Assembly: GCF_021531595.1 (NCBI RefSeq)
Contig: NZ_JADYUD010000002.1
Span: 62,001-126,000 of the forward strand
Direction: 5' to 3'
Length of the DNA stretch: 64,000 nucleotides
DNA from: Fusobacterium perfoetens
Lineage (GTDB): Bacteria; Fusobacteriota; Fusobacteriia; Fusobacteriales; Fusobacteriaceae
Part shown: one piece after another, positions 19,118-26,659 of the stretch
Layout: the number at the start of each line of letters is the position of its first letter
How positions within the stretch are numbered: position 1 is the first letter of the stretch
Translations under genes and position numbers: made by a program
The notes under the pieces: model-generated
The model's database searches: none
The model's input: the letters and a program-made list of their open reading frames with translations, nothing else
Told to the model about the DNA's origin: nothing

Positions 19118-22100
19118 ATGAATAACTATGTTAGCACAGAAAAATCATTAAAAAGATGGTTAAAAACGAGAGTAAAAGTAACAATGGCAACTGTAGTAGG
19201 ATTCCTTATTGCAGGAACTGTAGCTTTTGGAGCTGGAACTATTCCAGAAGATGGTGTATATAATAATGATGTTTTATTAAATACTTTACAAAGTACAAAA
19301 TTTGCTGTAGGACAAAATGGAAATCTTGAAATTTATTCAAATGGTAGTGTTGGACATTTATTATCAGATTTACAAGGCAATCATTCTTTATCAGGAATAC
19401 AAAATGCATTAAGTCAGCAGAATAATCATCCTGGATATGTTGTTTTAACAGGAGCTTTAGCAGGAGAGGGAAATTATGATGGACTAACTGTTGCTGCTTT
19501 AAATGTTCTTTCAGGAAAAGGAGGTTCTCTTGGTAATTTAGCAAAAGCTTTAAAGAGATTTGATACTTCAAATAAAACAGGGAATATAGAAATTGTTGGA
19601 GATACAAAAACTATTGTAGGAAATACAGAAAATTCTCCAGTTGTTTTAGGATTAATTGGTGGAGATTTTTCAGCTGGATTACTTGGAACAGTAGAGCAGT
19701 CATTAACAAGAACAGGAAATACATCAGTTACAATAAATAATGGTAATGTTTTTGGAGCAACAGTTGGAAGCACAGCGATTTCAGCAGGAAATTTAAAAGT
19801 GAAATATTCATTTTTACCTATTTCAGCAAATAATAAAGGAACAGCTACAATTAATGGAAATACTACATTAAATATAAATGGTCCAGCAAATGCAGCAGGA
19901 ATTACAGCAGGAGGACTTGCAGCAGCAATAGGTGGTACAGCAACATCAACTGTAAATGGAGATTCTAATATAAAAGTTAATTCTGTAGTTAATGCTGGTA
20001 AATTGGAAGGATTAACAGTAGGATTATTTGGTGGAGGAATGACAGTTTCTACTTTAGGTGGAAAAGCTGAAGCAAATACAACAGGAACTACAAATGTAGA
20101 AATAACTGATGGGCTTTCTGTTGGAGTAATAGGTGGAGGACTTGCAGTTTCAACTGATGCTTCTCAATATTTAAAAGATGGATTAGAAATAGGTGGTAAA
20201 AAAGGAAGAATAGATGGAAAAGGAAATTTTGTAATTGATTTAGATGGAATACCACCAATTACAGTTTCAGGACTTAAAGCTGGTGGAACATCAACAGTTA
20301 AATCTGGAGATATTAATGTAAATCTTAATGGAAAAACAGCTGCAGCTGCTGTATTAGGAAATGGTATTGCAGTATCACATCAAAATGCACCTCAAGGGGC
20401 AAAACCTACTGAAAACGATAAAATTTCAACATCAACAGTAGAAGCAAATAATATTACAGTAAATATAGATTTAACTAAAAACTTAAATGGAACAGAAATA
20501 GGAAATAATAATGTAATAGGAAAAGTTAAAGATGTATTTGTACAATTAAAAAATATTGTTGATCCAAAAGTAGGTACAGATGTAAGTAAAGTAATTGGTT
20601 CAATGCAAGGTGCAGTAGGAGCATTAAAAGATGGTGGAATAGCAGTAGGGGTAGCAGGAAATGGTATTGCAATAGCTGCTGATAAAGGAGTTTCAACAGT
20701 AAAAGCTAATAATACAACTCTTAACTTAAATGGTGGATATATTGTTGGAGCTTTAGGAAATGGTATTGCTATGAATAATGCTTGGGCAAAATCAACAGCA
20801 GAAGTAGGAAAATCTGTAATAAATATTGATGGAGAAGATACAGAAGTAATTGGAGTTTCTGGAAATGGACTTGCAGTTTATTATGGTTCAGGAAATTATG
20901 ACGGAAGCTTAAACTTTGAAGGTAAAGCTCTTGTTCAAGTAAAAGACAGTGAAATTAATATTACGAATGGTTCAGCTGATGGAGTATTTGGTGGAGGAAT
21001 TGCAATAGATGATTCTGAACTTAATACAAAAAATGCAGAAGCTATAACATCAGGAACTTCTACAATAAAGGTAACTGGTGGACTTGTTAAAGATTTTGGT
21101 TATGAACATTTAGGTGGAGTTATATCTGGTGGAACAATTGGAGGACAAGATTATGCTTCTTATTATAAAGAAGTACAAGCTCTTGGAGATGGAGTTGCTA
21201 TAGTTGGTGGAGGAGTTGCAGCAGGAAATAATGCTAAAGCTCATGTAGAAAATTCTATAATTGAAATCTCTGGTGGAAAAATAGAAGGAGATATTTTAGC
21301 AGGAGGACTTGCAACAAGAGGAGCAGAATCTACTGTTAAAGAATCTACTATTAATATTACTGGTGGAGAAATCATTGGTAGTGTTTACGGAACAGGAAAA
21401 GCAACAGAAGCTGGAAAAGGAAAATTAACAGAGGCAGGAAAAGCAACTGTAGAAAATTCTGTATTAAATATTGATGGTTACACAAACAGCATAAAAAATA
21501 TCAGTGGATTTGATAAAATTACTATCTCTAAAGCTACAGATATGAAAGTTAATAATATTCTTTTAGAAGAAGGGGAAATATTAACAAATGATGGAAAATT
21601 AACTCTAGGATTAGATAAAGATAACGCATCACTTATAACAATAAAAGGTGGAACAGCAGAAAATAATGGAACTATCGTAGTAAAATCAACACAAAAAGTT
21701 GTTTCAAATACTGATGGTAAATTTGAAAGTGCAGGTACAATTCAAATCTCTGATATAGAAAAAGATAAATTAGGAGAATTTAAAGCTTCAGATTTATTTG
21801 ATGGAAAATATACATTTACAGGAATGCTAAAAGATAAAAATGGAAATGGTATATTAACAACAGATGATATAATTACTGGTGGTGGAGATTATAACTCTGA
21901 TGAAATAAATAATGCTGGAAAAGAAAATAATGGAGAAGTAAACCTTGGAGATAAAGTTGCTTTAGTTGGAGGAGAAAAACCAATAGATGTTGGTTCAGTA
22001 AACATTTATAACGATATTACAGTAAAAAATAATGAAGAAGAAAAAGGAGTTACAATAGAAAATACTCCTATCAATATTAGTGGAGATAAACATATTACAA

Positions 22101-23989
22101 TAGGAGAAGAAACAATAAAGGCTGATTTAACAATCAAAGATGGAACAGTAAATGGAGAAGAAGGAAAAACAGCTGTAGACTTTGCTAATAAAGATTCATC
22201 TCTTACTCTAGATGGAACAAACTTCACAGGAAATATAGGAACAGAAAATAATACAAACGGAACTGTTAGTGTAACTGATTCAACAGTAGATGGAGATATT
22301 ACAGCAGGAAGTGTTGTTACTGGAGATGAAGATTTATGGAATAGTTTATTTGGAAGCACTAGATTAAGAACAGCATTGTTTGCTGCAACAGCTAAAGAAG
22401 TAAAAACAACAGTATATAATGGTAATGTAACTGCAAGCGATAAACTTGGTGTTATAAATGAAAATGCAATTTATAATGGAAAAGTTACATTTACTGGTAA
22501 TGATGGTGATGGAATAAATATAGGAGCAACAGCAGGAAATACAGCTTCAGCAAGATTTAATGGAGATATAAAATCTAATAATATAAGACTAGTTGGAGAT
22601 GCTACAGCATACTATGCTTCAAATATTACAATGACTGGAAAAGATAATGATACTACAGGAACAAAAATTAATGGAGGAACAAATATATTTGAAGTAAGTG
22701 AAAAAGGAGAAAATGCTCTTCTTAATACTTCTAATAAAGTAGGAAATGCTGGAACTGGAGTATCAATTGCAGATAATTCTGGAGTAAAACTTGAAGCAAA
22801 TATTGATAAAGATACAGTAATTGATTTAGGAGATAAAACAAATCTTAATAATAATGATGTTAAATTAACTGAAAATAGTGATGGATTCTATGAATTATCT
22901 AAAGTTGGTACAGAAGGTAATAAATATGCTCTTAACTATAAAGACAATATAGCAAGTGAAAATGGATATAGTGCAGAACTTAATGATGTATTTGCAGCTT
23001 CTCAAGTTATCCACTCTAAATTAAATGAATTTGGATATAAAACAGTTGATGAAAGAGCAGAAGTACTAGATAAATATTATTCATCTAACATCTATTCTGA
23101 AACTGTAAAAGCAGCTTATGATACTGTTAAAATGAATGAAGAAGCAGTACTTTCTCTTGCTAGAAAATCTGAAGTAGGAAAATGGACAGCTGAAGGTAAA
23201 GCACTTTACTCTAAAGATGAATATGATAGAAAAGGAACTGTAGGAGATTATTCTTCTGAAATAGAATCAACAGGACTAATGGCAGCATTTGGTTATGGAT
23301 TAAATGAAACTACTACAGCAGGAGTAGCTTTCTCTGGTGTAAAACAAGATGTTGATACAGATACAGGAAGTGCTGATGCTGACTTATTCTACTTAGGAGT
23401 ATATGGAAATAAAGTTTATGGAAACTATGACTTTACAGCAGGATTAGGATACCAATTTGGAGAATATGAAGCTGATAACAATATTCTAGGAACAACAGGA
23501 GATAAATACGATTCTAAAGCATTAAGCGGATATGTACAAGGAAGATATACAGCAGACTTAGGAGATGGATTATCACTACAACCTAGAGTAAGATTAGGAT
23601 ATACTTATGTAGAACAAGATGATACAAGAGATTCTTACTTTGGAGTATCTGACGCAGAAATTTCAACATTTGATGCAGAATTTGGTTTAGATACAGTTAA
23701 ATCAGTTCAATTAGAAAAATCTAAAGTAGATGTAAAATTCGGAGTATCTTATGTAAGAACAATGGGAGATACAGATGATGAATTTACAGGAAGATTCTAT
23801 GGAGCAACAGCAAGCGAAGGATTTAATGTATTAGGAGCAGAACTAGCAGAAAATGTAGTTAAATTTAACTTAGGAGCAGAAGTAACAAATGAAAATGGAT
23901 TCTTCTATAATGGTGGATTAACTTATGAATTCGGAAGCAATGATACAGAAGCTTACGGTGTAACAGCAGGTGTAGGATATAAGTTCTAA
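19118..23989 (+). CDS. Type Va autotransporter, large repetitive passenger
   Basis: A 1623-residue secreted outer-membrane protein. A long leader (residues 1-39) has the basic EKSLKRWLKTRVKVT segment, then a hydrophobic core ending in VAFGA, as in other fusobacterial autotransporters. The passenger (about 40-1330) is rich in Gly, Asn, Thr and Val, and has about ten copies of a G(N/G)G(I/L)AV-like motif between residues 262 and 730, expected to form a beta-helix. The C-terminal region (about 1340-1623) is the 12-strand translocator barrel and ends in the outer-membrane signal AGVGYKF. No protease triad was recognised. It is probably an adhesin, but the ligand is unknown. It is not as long as RadD or Fap2. 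Confidence 0.9.
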   Translation: MNNYVSTEKSLKRWLKTRVKVTMATVVGFLIAGTVAFGAGTIPEDGVYNNDVLLNTLQSTKFAVGQNGNLEIYSNGSVGHLLSDLQGNHSLSGIQNALSQQNNHPGYVVLTGALAGEGNYDGLTVAALNVLSGKGGSLGNLAKALKRFDTSNKTGNIEIVGDTKTIVGNTENSPVVLGLIGGDFSAGLLGTVEQSLTRTGNTSVTINNGNVFGATVGSTAISAGNLKVKYSFLPISANNKGTATINGNTTLNINGPANAAGITAGGLAAAIGGTATSTVNGDSNIKVNSVVNAGKLEGLTVGLFGGGMTVSTLGGKAEANTTGTTNVEITDGLSVGVIGGGLAVSTDASQYLKDGLEIGGKKGRIDGKGNFVIDLDGIPPITVSGLKAGGTSTVKSGDINVNLNGKTAAAAVLGNGIAVSHQNAPQGAKPTENDKISTSTVEANNITVNIDLTKNLNGTEIGNNNVIGKVKDVFVQLKNIVDPKVGTDVSKVIGSMQGAVGALKDGGIAVGVAGNGIAIAADKGVSTVKANNTTLNLNGGYIVGALGNGIAMNNAWAKSTAEVGKSVINIDGEDTEVIGVSGNGLAVYYGSGNYDGSLNFEGKALVQVKDSEINITNGSADGVFGGGIAIDDSELNTKNAEAITSGTSTIKVTGGLVKDFGYEHLGGVISGGTIGGQDYASYYKEVQALGDGVAIVGGGVAAGNNAKAHVENSIIEISGGKIEGDILAGGLATRGAESTVKESTINITGGEIIGSVYGTGKATEAGKGKLTEAGKATVENSVLNIDGYTNSIKNISGFDKITISKATDMKVNNILLEEGEILTNDGKLTLGLDKDNASLITIKGGTAENNGTIVVKSTQKVVSNTDGKFESAGTIQISDIEKDKLGEFKASDLFDGKYTFTGMLKDKNGNGILTTDDIITGGGDYNSDEINNAGKENNGEVNLGDKVALVGGEKPIDVGSVNIYNDITVKNNEEEKGVTIENTPINISGDKHITIGEETIKADLTIKDGTVNGEEGKTAVDFANKDSSLTLDGTNFTGNIGTENNTNGTVSVTDSTVDGDITAGSVVTGDEDLWNSLFGSTRLRTALFAATAKEVKTTVYNGNVTASDKLGVINENAIYNGKVTFTGNDGDGINIGATAGNTASARFNGDIKSNNIRLVGDATAYYASNITMTGKDNDTTGTKINGGTNIFEVSEKGENALLNTSNKVGNAGTGVSIADNSGVKLEANIDKDTVIDLGDKTNLNNNDVKLTENSDGFYELSKVGTEGNKYALNYKDNIASENGYSAELNDVFAASQVIHSKLNEFGYKTVDERAEVLDKYYSSNIYSETVKAAYDTVKMNEEAVLSLARKSEVGKWTAEGKALYSKDEYDRKGTVGDYSSEIESTGLMAAFGYGLNETTTAGVAFSGVKQDVDTDTGSADADLFYLGVYGNKVYGNYDFTAGLGYQFGEYEADNNILGTTGDKYDSKALSGYVQGRYTADLGDGLSLQPRVRLGYTYVEQDDTRDSYFGVSDAEISTFDAEFGLDTVKSVQLEKSKVDVKFGVSYVRTMGDTDDEFTGRFYGATASEGFNVLGAELAENVVKFNLGAEVTNENGFFYNGGLTYEFGSNDTEAYGVTAGVGYKF

Positions 23990-24028: not shown

Positions 24029-24066
24029 AAAAACAGGGCTCAGAGAAATCTGAGTCCTGTTTTTTG
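24029..24066 (+). terminator. Rho-independent terminator after the autotransporter
   Basis: AAAAACAGG-G-CTCAGA and TCTGAG-T-CCTGTTTTT pair around a GAAA tetraloop and run into six T residues. Confidence 0.85.
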
Positions 24067-24091
24067 TCATTATATTTTTTATGCCACTTAT

Positions 24092-24120
24092 TTGACACAG
24101 TAGTATAGTATTCTTAGAAT
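24092..24120 (+). promoter_or_regulatory. Near-consensus promoter upstream of the two-component operon
   Basis: TTGACA at 24092-24097, 17 bases, then TAGAAT at 24115-24120 (an overlapping TATAAT begins at 24120). It drives a short unit that ends in a hairpin at 24208-24239, before the response regulator. Confidence 0.75.
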
Positions 24121-24147
24121 ATAATTATAAAAATGGAGATAGATTAA

Positions 24148-24246
24148 ATGTTAAGTTTGCCGGCAGACAATACTTTATTTTATAAGATGCAAAACCAGCT
24201 GCATGAGCAGGAGAGGAATAGAAAACTTCTCCTGTTTTTGTTATAA
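24148..24246 (+). CDS. Possible 32-residue leader peptide
   Basis: ATG 24148 is preceded by GGAGA at 24135-24139, 8 bases away, and lies 28 bases after the promoter. The frame reads MLSLPADNTLFYK and continues to LLLFLL before TAA. The last third of the frame is itself the hairpin CAGGAGA/TCTCCTG followed by five T residues. That arrangement, a translated short frame overlapping a terminator upstream of a regulator, is what a translation-sensitive attenuator looks like. It may also be a chance frame inside a small RNA. No similarity is recognised. Confidence 0.35.
   Translation: MLSLPADNTLFYKMQNQLHEQERNRKLLLFLL
24208..24239 (+). terminator. Terminator-like hairpin before the response regulator
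   Basis: CAGGAGA (24208-24214) pairs with TCTCCTG (24228-24234), followed by TTTTT. It lies between the promoter at 24092 and the response-regulator start at 24298, so it would attenuate the operon or end a small RNA of about 113 bases. Confidence 0.6.
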
Positions 24247-24297
24247 TTATAAATATAAAAGAATAAAAATCCTGCATAAAAATTTAAGGAGATGTAA

Positions 24298-24957
24298 ATG
24301 GATAAGAGAATACTGCTGGTTGAAGATGAGTGGAAATTAAGAAGAATAGCTGCTGACTTTTTAAAAAGAGAAAAGTTTAATGTTATAGAGGCTGGAGATG
24401 GAGAAGAAGCTTTAGATTTTATACTTACAGAAAAATTTGATTTAATAATTTTAGATTTAATGCTTCCTAAAATAAATGGCTGGGAGCTTTTAAAAGAGAT
24501 AAGAGAAAAAGATTCATCTCTTCCTGTTATAATGCTTACAGCAAGAGGAAGCGAAGAGGATATTTTAAAAGGATATGAAATGAAGGCTGATGAATATATT
24601 GTAAAGCCTGTAAGCATGAAAGTCCTTGTGGCAAAAGTAAAAGCATTTTTAAGAATACATAGCCTAGGTGAAACAATTTCATTTGGGGGAATTACAATAA
24701 ATACAGATACAAGAGATATAAAAATGGACGGAGTTCCTTTGGAACTTTCTCAAAAAGAGTATGAACTTTTACTTTTCTTTATAAAAAATAAAGGGCAGGT
24801 TCTTTCAAGAGACCGTATAATTACATCTTTATGGGGATATGATTATGATGGAGATATAAGAGCTGTTGATTCTCAGATAAAGAGAATAAGAAAAAAGCTT
24901 GATGGAAAATATATTAAAACTATAAGAGGTGCAGGTTACAAAATAGAGGAGGAATAA
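24298..24957 (+). CDS. OmpR-family response regulator
   Basis: A 219-residue DNA-binding response regulator. The receiver domain (1 to about 120) has the acidic pair ED at 9-10, the phosphoacceptor D53 in LIILDLMLP, a Thr in MLTAR and the Lys in VKPVS. The winged-helix domain (about 125-219) ends with the usual DSQIKRIRKKL...RGAGYKIE. The start is at ATG 24298 after AAGGAGA. The stop overlaps the kinase start by one base, so the pair is coupled. The CpxP-like gene two positions downstream suggests the target is envelope stress. Confidence 0.94.
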   Translation: MDKRILLVEDEWKLRRIAADFLKREKFNVIEAGDGEEALDFILTEKFDLIILDLMLPKINGWELLKEIREKDSSLPVIMLTARGSEEDILKGYEMKADEYIVKPVSMKVLVAKVKAFLRIHSLGETISFGGITINTDTRDIKMDGVPLELSQKEYELLLFFIKNKGQVLSRDRIITSLWGYDYDGDIRAVDSQIKRIRKKLDGKYIKTIRGAGYKIEEE

Positions 24958-26303
24958 TGAGCAGTATCCGTAATAAACTGTTTTTCCTTATAGCCTCAGT
25001 TATTACAATGATAATGTTTTTTATGGTTGCTTTTAATGAGGTGTATTTTGAAAAATACTTTTTAAAAATAAAAAAGAATCAGCTTTTTTATCTTGCAAAT
25101 GAGATAAAAGATCCTCGTTCTTTAATAGATTTAAGTGCTATTGAAGAAAAAAATAATATAAAAATATATATAATAAACGAAAGATATCTTAATGATATAG
25201 ATGTATCTCTTTCTAAAGAGGATATGACAGAACTTTTTGAAAATCCTAAAAAATTTGTATTCAGGCTTACAGATACATCATTTTCTTTGGATAAGGAACT
25301 TACTATAATAACATCATATAATAAAAATCAGCTTCTTATAATAAGCACTCCTTTCAGTTCTGTAAAAGAGCCTGTAAATATTATTACATCTTTTCACCTG
25401 AAAATAGTTCTTACAGCTCTTGTTTTAGGTTATGTTCTTTCAATTATACTTTCAAGAATTATAACAGCTTCAATTATAGATATGGGGGAAACTGCCAAAA
25501 GAGTTGCAAAATTAGATTTTTCTCAGGAGTTTAAATCTTATTCAAAAGATGAGATTGGAATTCTGGGAGAGAACCTTAATATAATGTCAGCACAGCTTAA
25601 GGACAGTATAGAAAAACTTCAGGAAGATATAGAAAAAGAAAGAAAAATAGATAAAATGAGAAAAGAATTTATCTCCAGTGTCAGCCATGAACTTAAAACT
25701 CCCATTGCAATTATAAATAACTATTGCGAGGGATTAAAAGAGGGAATAGCAGATGATAAAGAAACAGCTGACTTTTACCTTGATATAATTATGGAAGAAA
25801 CTGAAAATATGAATAAGCTTGTTCAGTCACTTTTATTTTTATCAAGGGCAGAGAGAGGATTTATTACTTTTAATTCAGAGAGATTTAATATAAAAGAAAT
25901 TATTGAAAATGAAGTAAAAAGAGCTGAAAACTTAAATACAGAAGATAAAAAAGTTATTGTAGATATAAAAGATAAGTTTTTTGTTGGAGATAAAGAACAA
26001 CTTACTGCTGTTATTAAGAATCTTGTAGAAAATAGTTTTAAATATGTAGAGCCAGAAGGTGAGATAATTATAAAATCTGAAAACAATAGATTTACTATAG
26101 GAAATACATCTCATATTTCAGAAAAGGAAATAGAAAATATATGGCTTCCTTTCTACAGAGCAGATAAAGCCAGAGATAGAAAACTGGGAACAGGTCTTGG
26201 GCTTGCAATAGTAAAAGAGATACTTGAGAGCCATAAACTTAAATATGGTGTTTATAAAGAAGATGATAAAATTATTTTTTGGTTTGAAGGAGGAGAAGAA
26301 TGA
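24957..26303 (+). CDS. Membrane sensor histidine kinase
   Basis: A 448-residue inner-membrane kinase. A first membrane segment lies at about residues 8-26, followed by a sensor domain outside the membrane (27-143) and a second segment at about 144-167. HAMP covers about 165-218. The H-box SSVSHELKTPI places the phosphorylated His at about 244. The ATP-binding domain has NLVENSFKY (N box), and LGTGLGLAIVKEI (G box). No known ligand-binding fold is obvious in the sensor part. It is coupled to the response regulator upstream and overlaps the CpxP-like gene downstream by 4 bases. Confidence 0.93.
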   Translation: MSSIRNKLFFLIASVITMIMFFMVAFNEVYFEKYFLKIKKNQLFYLANEIKDPRSLIDLSAIEEKNNIKIYIINERYLNDIDVSLSKEDMTELFENPKKFVFRLTDTSFSLDKELTIITSYNKNQLLIISTPFSSVKEPVNIITSFHLKIVLTALVLGYVLSIILSRIITASIIDMGETAKRVAKLDFSQEFKSYSKDEIGILGENLNIMSAQLKDSIEKLQEDIEKERKIDKMRKEFISSVSHELKTPIAIINNYCEGLKEGIADDKETADFYLDIIMEETENMNKLVQSLLFLSRAERGFITFNSERFNIKEIIENEVKRAENLNTEDKKVIVDIKDKFFVGDKEQLTAVIKNLVENSFKYVEPEGEIIIKSENNRFTIGNTSHISEKEIENIWLPFYRADKARDRKLGTGLGLAIVKEILESHKLKYGVYKEDDKIIFWFEGGEE

Positions 26304-26659
26304 AAAAGCTAATATTTGCAGCCTTTATTTTTATAGCATGTACAATATTTGCAAAACATAATGAGTATACTCTTACAGATCCTCTTAAAGATTTCAGAGA
26401 AAAAAAATCCATAGAATATCTTACTGCAGATCAGAAAGATAAACTTCTTATTTTAAGAAGGGAGTATTTCAGAGAACTTAAAGATATTCAGGAAAAAGTG
26501 AGAGAACTTAGAAAAGAAGCCAATGAATGTATGATGAATAATGATGAAAAAAGATATGAAGAAATTCATGATGTGATGAATGAACTTAAACTTAAAAGAG
26601 AACTTGTGAAAGAAAATTATAGAGAACAAATAGATGAGATTTTAGAACAAAAAAATTAA
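26300..26659 (+). CDS. CpxP/Spy-like periplasmic LTxxQ protein
   Basis: A 119-residue protein with a signal peptide (1 to about 18, ending TIFA). The mature part is nearly all charged helix and contains LTADQ at residues 42-46, matching the LTxxQ motif of CpxP, Spy and ZraP, followed by two long helices (LRREYFRELKDIQEKV and MNELKLKRELVKENY). In enterobacteria these proteins sense misfolding or metals in the periplasm and restrain their kinase. The ATGA overlap with the kinase gene makes a functional link very likely. The family assignment rests on motif and helix pattern only. Confidence 0.7.
   Translation: MKKLIFAAFIFIACTIFAKHNEYTLTDPLKDFREKKSIEYLTADQKDKLLILRREYFRELKDIQEKVRELRKEANECMMNNDEKRYEEIHDVMNELKLKRELVKENYREQIDEILEQKN

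What the first reader, a model, noticed from the sequence alone, without database searches (positions are those of the whole stretch)
24092..24246. Promoter, 32-codon frame and terminator form a possible attenuator in front of the regulator
Seen: a near-consensus promoter (TTGACA, 17, TAGAAT), a GGAGA site, ATG, 32 codons, and a hairpin plus five T residues inside the last third of the frame, all before the response regulator. A ribosome translating the frame would cover the hairpin and could prevent termination. An alternative is a terminated small RNA of about 113 bases. TGCCGGCA at 24158-24165 is a further palindrome inside it.
Basis: inference. Interest (0 to 1): 0.52.

Follow-up and report, generated by a model that had tools for sequence, protein, structure and literature searches.

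The report
Regulator-switched small RNA before its regulator
The stretch just before a stress-type regulator gene is most likely a separate small RNA switched on by that regulator, rather than a built-in brake on the regulator gene, and related bacteria carry the same switch in front of whole rows of small RNA genes.

Summary
(1) TTGACA is half of an 11-bp direct repeat, TGNCA-N6-TGNCA, followed 11 nt later by TANNNT. All nine such repeats near this regulator, its relatives and linked secreted-protein genes share that spacing. (2) In 7 of 7 genus genomes the terminator before the regulator runs straight into TGNTAYAAT, so the regulator has its own promoter behind the terminator. (3) The frame exists only in the window; in the near-identical pair G001/G003 an indel shifts the best candidate frame, while 165 nt are identical. 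(4) The frame's stop lies beyond the T-run. (5) The same box-promoter marks 25 small-RNA-type units in the genus, including tandem arrays of 3-4 near-identical, C-rich RNAs absent from Rfam. I read the finding as a terminated ~115-120 nt RNA, probably activated by the neighbouring OmpR-type regulator, comparable to LhrC/LisRK and csRNA/CiaRH. Its targets are unknown and no expression data exist. A dampened autoregulatory promoter remains the main rival.

The parts
24033..24065 (+). Terminator-like hairpin and T-run ending the upstream autotransporter unit, isolating the locus
   Evidence: read directly from the sequence; the scan reported only the minus-strand reading of its inner part
24082..24097 (+).
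   Evidence: one of two hits of the Y-form of the box in the whole genome
24109..24114 (+). Candidate -10 TATTCT at the conserved spacing of 11 from the box
   Evidence: 9 of 9 linked boxes have TANNNT at 11
24115..24120 (+).
   Evidence: TANNNT at spacing 17 in only 4 of 9 boxes
24121..24239 (+). Predicted small RNA (start about 24121-24127, end at the T-run)
   Evidence: transcription itself not shown
24148..24246 (+). 32-codon frame; stop codon lies past the T-run and inside the next promoter's -10; probably not functional
24205..24239 (+). Intrinsic terminator of the small RNA (12-pair hairpin, five T)
   Evidence: counterparts before the regulator in 7 of 7 genus genomes
24239..24247 (+). 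Extended -10 TGTTATAAT, predicted own promoter of the regulator operon
   Evidence: TGNTAYAAT in 7 of 7 genomes, each in at most 17 of 2000 shuffles
24298..24957 (+). OmpR/PhoB-type response regulator, 219 aa
   Evidence: Pfam PF00072 and PF00486; the NCBIfam equivalogs shown are all below cut-off
24957..26303 (+). Sensor histidine kinase, 448 aa
   Evidence: Pfam HisKA, HATPase_c, HAMP
26300..26659 (+). Small secreted-looking helical protein, 119 aa, with an LTADQ motif; position recalls CpxP/Spy
   Evidence: no Pfam family above cut-off; helical hairpin model, no significant fold match

Best explanation
The 24082-24247 stretch is an independent small-RNA gene plus the start of the regulator's own promoter. 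Step 1 (inferred from motif and linkage): the phosphorylated OmpR-type regulator encoded at 24298 binds the 11-bp direct repeat TGCCA-N6-TGACA and, sitting in the -35 position, activates a promoter with its -10 at 24109-24120. Step 2 (inferred from sequence): transcription starts at about 24121-24127 and stops at the hairpin and T-run at 24205-24239, giving a structured RNA of about 113-119 nt. Step 3 (predicted, conserved): the regulator-kinase operon is transcribed from its own extended -10 promoter at 24239-24247. Step 4 (inferred by analogy): the RNA acts in trans by base pairing as part of a non-coding arm of an envelope-type stress response. In relatives the same box drives tandem C-rich small RNAs and small secreted proteins. 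The RNA's targets are not known.
For: Box found without a -10 constraint: 9 of 9 copies near the regulator, a related regulator or its upstream secreted-protein gene have TANNNT exactly 11 nt downstream. The full pattern occurs 39 times in 7 genus genomes against 5 for the reversed control. Of the 39, 25 are small-RNA-type units: 15 class A, 4 class B, 5 before the regulator, 1 elsewhere in the window's own genome. A covariance model of class A found two further copies outside the arrays, both directly under box hits that had not been used to build it. Terminator plus TGNTAYAAT before the regulator in 7 of 7. G001 against G003: a 165-nt identical run from -151 to +14 of the regulator, next longest 59 in 3 kb, while third positions of regulator and kinase are 82% and 80% identical. 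The indel inside the RNA shifts the best candidate frame. Four OmpR-type regulators in the genome, the intergenic box hits near only this one.
Against: No expression data. The RNA body is not alignable between the window and any other species; only box, terminator and position are shared. Unlike classes A and D, the window RNA has no C-run. Frame plus RBS is seen in only 33 of 3000 shuffles, so translation is not excluded. The window's box has TGCCA and a poor -10 (TATTCT). Binding of the box by this regulator is not shown; in genus g5 the same pattern precedes what read as microcompartment genes, so it is not specific to one regulator. Most regulator loci outside the genus have no box nearby. 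The identical 165-nt run also covers the regulator's promoter and 5' UTR, so it does not prove RNA function.
Confidence: 0.6

Rival explanations
1. Autoregulatory promoter with a leaky terminator: the box is the regulator's own upstream autoactivation site, and the hairpin only limits how much of that transcription reads into the operon. The short RNA is a by-product without targets.
For: Autoactivation is common in two-component systems (general knowledge). In G002 and G005 the box drives a secreted-protein gene and the same terminator separates it from the regulator. In G052 a box lies upstream of a methyltransferase-like gene that precedes the closest regulator homologue. The RNA body is not conserved between species.
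Against: The sequence of the RNA itself is nearly frozen between G001 and G003. The same box-promoter drives free-standing small-RNA units with no gene to autoregulate. The regulator has its own predicted promoter in all seven genomes.
Confidence: 0.22
2. Leader-peptide attenuator: a ribosome translating the 32 codons opens the hairpin and lets transcription reach the regulator.
For: Good RBS and an open frame across the hairpin; the frame's last codons are leucine-rich (CTT CTC CTG TTT TTG TTA).
Against: The leucines are only the reading of the hairpin's 3' arm and T-run. No equivalent frame in G001, G003, G004, G006. Own promoter behind the hairpin. No strong antiterminator pairing of the 5' arm when the 3' arm is removed.
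Confidence: 0.06
3. Box-driven gene for a small protein in front of the regulator, for instance a feedback peptide.
For: G052 has a 35-codon, membrane-like frame (by eye) with a strong RBS between a box and a terminator, before a related regulator. The window frame has an RBS.
Against: In the window the stop codon lies beyond the terminator; other genus members have no comparable frame. The two peptides look unlike each other by eye; they were not compared by a tool.
Confidence: 0.07
4. Chance assembly of AT-rich promoter-like and hairpin-like sequence.
For: Promoter-like sites as such are not above chance here.
Against: Conserved box spacing, terminator and following promoter across species.
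Confidence: 0.05

Closest known systems
LhrC1-5 small RNAs of Listeria under LisRK (PMC4132741, passages read)
   Same: Multicopy, near-identical, C-rich RNAs that depend on an envelope-stress two-component system; the class A RNAs of the window's relatives look like this, each with its own promoter.
   Different: No sequence relation was tested. LisRK dependence and stress induction are shown there, nothing of the kind here. The window's own RNA before the regulator is single and not C-rich.
csRNAs of streptococci under CiaRH (PMC8186281, passages read)
   Same: A direct repeat with N5 between hexamers (TTTAAG-N5-TTTAAG) drives several small RNAs; the same 11-bp period as the box here (NTGNCA-N5-NTGNCA); tandem csRNA copies reported in S. 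sanguinis.
   Different: Different box letters, different phylum; sequence relation of the RNAs not tested.
CpxQ from the cpxP 3' UTR under CpxR (PMC4817254 abstract, PMC9438474 passages)
   Same: In G001 and G003 the RNA unit lies right behind a box-driven small secreted-protein gene next to the regulator-kinase pair.
   Different: Here the RNA has its own predicted promoter rather than being cut from the mRNA. The secreted proteins were not recognised as CpxP/Spy family.
FoxJ/FoxI of Fusobacterium nucleatum (PMC11005410, abstract, section 15, part 1 of section 4, passages)
   Same: FoxJ lies upstream of ylmH with a strong internal stop followed by a secondary start, and had been taken for a 5' UTR: the same anatomy. 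FoxI uses a C-stretch for repression.
   Different: FoxI and FoxJ depend on sigma-E promoters; here the promoter is a regulator-type direct repeat with a TATAAT-like -10. Sequence homology not tested, since I saw no FoxI or FoxJ sequence.

Membership tests
Two-component-controlled trans-acting sRNA (LhrC/csRNA kind) | Promoter with a response-regulator direct repeat | tested here: met
   TGNCA-N6-TGNCA-N11-TANNNT, 39 hits against 5 control hits in the genus; 9 of 9 spacing. Actual binding not tested.
Two-component-controlled trans-acting sRNA (LhrC/csRNA kind) | Discrete RNA ending at an intrinsic terminator | tested here: inconclusive
   Terminator predicted; no transcript data.
Two-component-controlled trans-acting sRNA (LhrC/csRNA kind) | Single-stranded C-rich pairing motif | tested here: not met
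   Absent from the window RNA as read; present in classes A and D. Therefore not filed as an LhrC or csRNA member.
Two-component-controlled trans-acting sRNA (LhrC/csRNA kind) | Base-pairs with mRNAs in trans | not testable with these tools
   For class A only, a 12-nt complement of the seed gave no 5'-UTR match among the 4 non-array hits.
Leader-peptide transcription attenuator | Conserved leader frame | tested here: not met
   No comparable frame in G001, G003, G004, G006.
Leader-peptide transcription attenuator | Competing antiterminator structure | tested here: not met
   Without the 3' arm, the 5' arm is mostly unpaired, with only weak pairs upstream; window sequence only.
Leader-peptide transcription attenuator | Downstream gene depends on the leader promoter | tested here: inconclusive
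   A separate promoter is predicted behind the terminator in 7 of 7; not measured.
Rfam family | Match to a curated model | tested here: not met
   Window: none at gathering score. L101, L107, L112, L121, L122: none at E 0.1.
CpxP/Spy family (downstream and upstream secreted proteins) | Pfam LTXXQ or Metal_resist match | tested here: not met
   Four proteins scanned; best Metal_resist 16.1 bits against cut-off 29.2; for the window protein no PDB fold match below E 0.001.

The most novel reading that the evidence does not exclude
Members of this genus have a Cpx/LisRK-like two-component system whose regulon is largely non-coding: one repeat-box promoter type drives an RNA before the regulator itself, tandem arrays of 3-4 near-identical C-rich RNAs beside ispG, a further single-copy RNA family (class B), and small secreted proteins. 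This would be a second, sigma-E-independent non-coding arm of envelope stress in Fusobacteriota. In the window's genome the box would control essentially only two small RNAs.
Probability: 0.45. Interest if true: 0.68.

Novelty: new member of a known kind. Interest (0 to 1): 0.52.

Why it matters
In Fusobacterium the known stress small RNAs FoxI and FoxJ answer to sigma-E (PMC11005410). A regulator-box promoter type that marks small-RNA genes, tandem copies included, gives a sequence rule for finding a separate group of small RNAs and ties them to one two-component system. It also warns that an apparent leader plus terminator upstream of a regulator may be its own RNA gene, as happened with FoxJ. 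My full-text searches (open-licence PMC only) listed no paper whose title or abstract start reports a two-component-controlled small RNA in Fusobacterium. Two key Fusobacterium transcriptome papers are not held, so this is not a claim that none is in print.

Tried and rejected
Direct DNA search of 24080-24300 in the genus: only low-score AT-rich matches apart from the window itself; rejected as homology. Regulator protein search in named genomes: 20 loci from other phyla, not used further. Class A seed complement AATGGGGAAAAT as target finder in 4 genomes: 10 hits, 6 of them the arrays themselves; none of the other 4 looks like a 5' UTR. Exact 36-nt piece of the window RNA in viral contigs: 0. 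Synteny of the own-genome class D RNA (between a glutamate-dehydrogenase-like and an azlC-like gene) with 10 class A/B loci: none. Structure of the 119-aa protein: helical hairpin, mean pLDDT 78.9, no significant PDB match. Relaxed box in the own genome (2 mismatches): 3 hits, of which only the class D unit is convincing.

Dropped from or left open in the count of 39 genus box hits: 25 small-RNA-type units and 6 protein-gene promoters (4 secreted-protein genes, one TolC-like by eye, one short membrane-protein gene) leave 8: five that look like chance hits in coding sequence, one reverse reading of an array box, one unclear (L196), and one (G003:C21) not inspected. The diverged third array copy of G004 is counted in class A but was left out of model R1.

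Full report
OBSERVATION. The promoter TTGACA-17-TAGAAT scores 11 of 12, best in the 4-kb region, although the region holds no more promoter-like sites than its shuffles. The hairpin 24205-24237 (-16.2 kcal/mol) with T at 24235-24239 is a credible terminator. The frame 24148-24246 is open for 32 codons. Two details matter and were missed. The frame's stop codon (24244-24246) lies beyond the T-run, so a terminated transcript would have no stop. And that stop sits inside TGTTATAAT (24239-24247), an extended -10.

SETTING. Upstream is a 1623-aa autotransporter-like gene (19118-23989) with its own hairpin and T-run (24033-24065, read). Downstream is an OmpR/PhoB-type regulator, a HisKA kinase and a 119-aa secreted-looking protein. 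NCBIfam finds PhoB as best equivalog but far below its cut-off, and likewise CpxR, so I do not name the regulator.

COMPARISON. The kinase was searched in 61 genomes of the family: 52 match at 1e-30. The six same-genus orthologues are 46-50% identical, and their regulators 57-66%, so these are distant species. DNA of the finding itself does not align to any of them beyond short AT-rich matches. The upstream regions do share an anatomy. In 7 of 7 genomes a terminator hairpin with T-run stands 40-60 nt before the regulator and runs directly into TGNTAYAAT; dinucleotide shuffles of each 75-nt stretch contain that motif in at most 17 of 2000. So the regulator very probably starts behind the terminator.

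THE BOX. In G001, G003 and G004 the spacer holds TTGACA-N5-TTGACA, and the window ATGCCA-N5-TTGACA. In G002 and G005 there is no room for an RNA; instead the box precedes a secreted-protein gene whose terminator is the one before the regulator. G001 and G003 have both: box, secreted protein, box, RNA unit, terminator, regulator. The nine are not all independent: G001 and G003 are close. So TTGACA is best read as a half-site in the -35 position.

GENUS-WIDE. The whole pattern gives 39 hits in 7 genomes against 5 for the reversed control, and about 194 against 35 in 61 genomes (my sums over the table). In the genus 25 of 39 are small-RNA-type units. Class A: 15 units in G001, G003, G004 and G006, 3-4 of them in tandem about 120-160 bp apart beside a gene that reads as ispG, each with its own box; all but one carry a 5' end like ATCATAATATTTTCCCCATTA, and all have a terminator, often with a C-rich loop. 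Class B: 4 units. Class C, the finding: 5 units, the one in G006 split over two contig ends. Class D: one unit in the window's own genome at G000:C8:34468. A covariance model of 12 class A copies found all twelve and two more outside the arrays (G001:C24, G003:C5), both under box hits not used for building; also weaker matches in G004:C23 (E 0.007, imperfect box by eye) and in four g5 genomes (E 0.002-0.009; the one inspected has no box); nothing in G000, G002 or G005. Rfam has no match to the five loci searched nor to the window. In the own genome the Y-form of the box has 2 hits, class C and class D, against 3 control hits, so the own-genome count alone proves nothing; it is the comparison that carries the weight. 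The own genome holds 4 OmpR-type regulators, and these two box hits lie near only this one or near none.

IS THE RNA ITSELF UNDER SELECTION? Between G001 and G003 the 165 nt from -151 to +14 of the regulator are identical, the longest identical run of the 3-kb locus (next 59), while third positions of the regulator and kinase are 82% and 80% identical. The identical run covers most of the RNA, the terminator, the regulator's promoter and its 5' UTR. Just upstream the sequence differs at the promoter. The only difference inside the predicted RNA, apart from its first base, is one A in an A-run that shifts the best candidate frame. So in that pair the unit is hardly a peptide gene. For the window's own RNA no close relative is available.

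MECHANISM. Best reading (0.6): a regulator-activated small RNA gene. Shown by computation: box, spacing, terminator, second promoter, conservation of layout. Inferred: that this regulator binds the box, that the RNA accumulates, that it acts in trans, that the stimulus is envelope stress. Against it: the body is not conserved between species, it lacks the C-run of classes A and D, and the box pattern is not unique to this regulator. In g5 it precedes what read as microcompartment genes. Of 13 other-genus loci scanned only L098 (G043) has a box with a TANNNT -10, between the kinase and a secreted-protein gene; G052 has one before a related regulator and one upstream of the operon of its closer homologue. 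The main rival (0.22) is autoregulation dampened by the terminator.

KNOWN SYSTEMS. Works like: LhrC/LisRK (PMC4132741, passages), csRNA/CiaRH with its N5-spaced repeat (PMC8186281, passages), and, in the arrangement of G001/G003, cpxP-CpxQ (PMC4817254 abstract, PMC9438474 passages). FoxJ (PMC11005410) is the closest anatomical precedent: an RNA mistaken for a 5' UTR, with an internal stop followed by a secondary start. Membership in any of these families is not claimed. CarR of F. nucleatum has a 17-bp motif (PMC12186487, passages); its letters were not seen, so identity with this box is open.

Noticed in passing
L101 (G001), L121 (G003), L122 (G004), L107 (G006): Tandem arrays of 3-4 near-identical C-rich small-RNA genes, each with its own TGACA-N6-TGACA-N11-TATAAT-like promoter, beside an ispG-like gene; not in Rfam.
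   Followed up: yes
L169 (G000:C8:33000-37000), about 1469-1600: Second box-driven small-RNA unit in the window's own genome (about 93 nt, CCCTACCC stretch, strong terminator), between a glutamate-dehydrogenase-like and an azlC-like gene.
   Followed up: partly
L109 (G003), L104 (G004), L128 (G006), L195 (G001): Class B: conserved box-driven RNA beginning TTTGTTCATAA(G/A)ACCTTTCCTTTTAAA, after a gene whose product ends in a glycine-rich tail.
   Followed up: partly
L096, about -180 to -50 of the regulator start: In G052 the corresponding box-to-terminator unit holds a 35-codon membrane-like frame with a strong RBS.
   Followed up: no
L163 (G044), L156 (G045): Another genus has repeated box-driven RNA units of a different sequence (GCCAAGAA(T/C)GAGGTTTAGTG...), two copies in G044 and one similar copy in G045.
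   Followed up: no
L165, L166: In other genera the same repeat pattern precedes genes that read as propanediol/ethanolamine microcompartment genes, so another regulator may use a similar box.
   Followed up: no
L201 (G034:C1:3920600-3921300): C-rich hairpin RNA candidate found by the class A model at E 0.0025, without a box.
   Followed up: no
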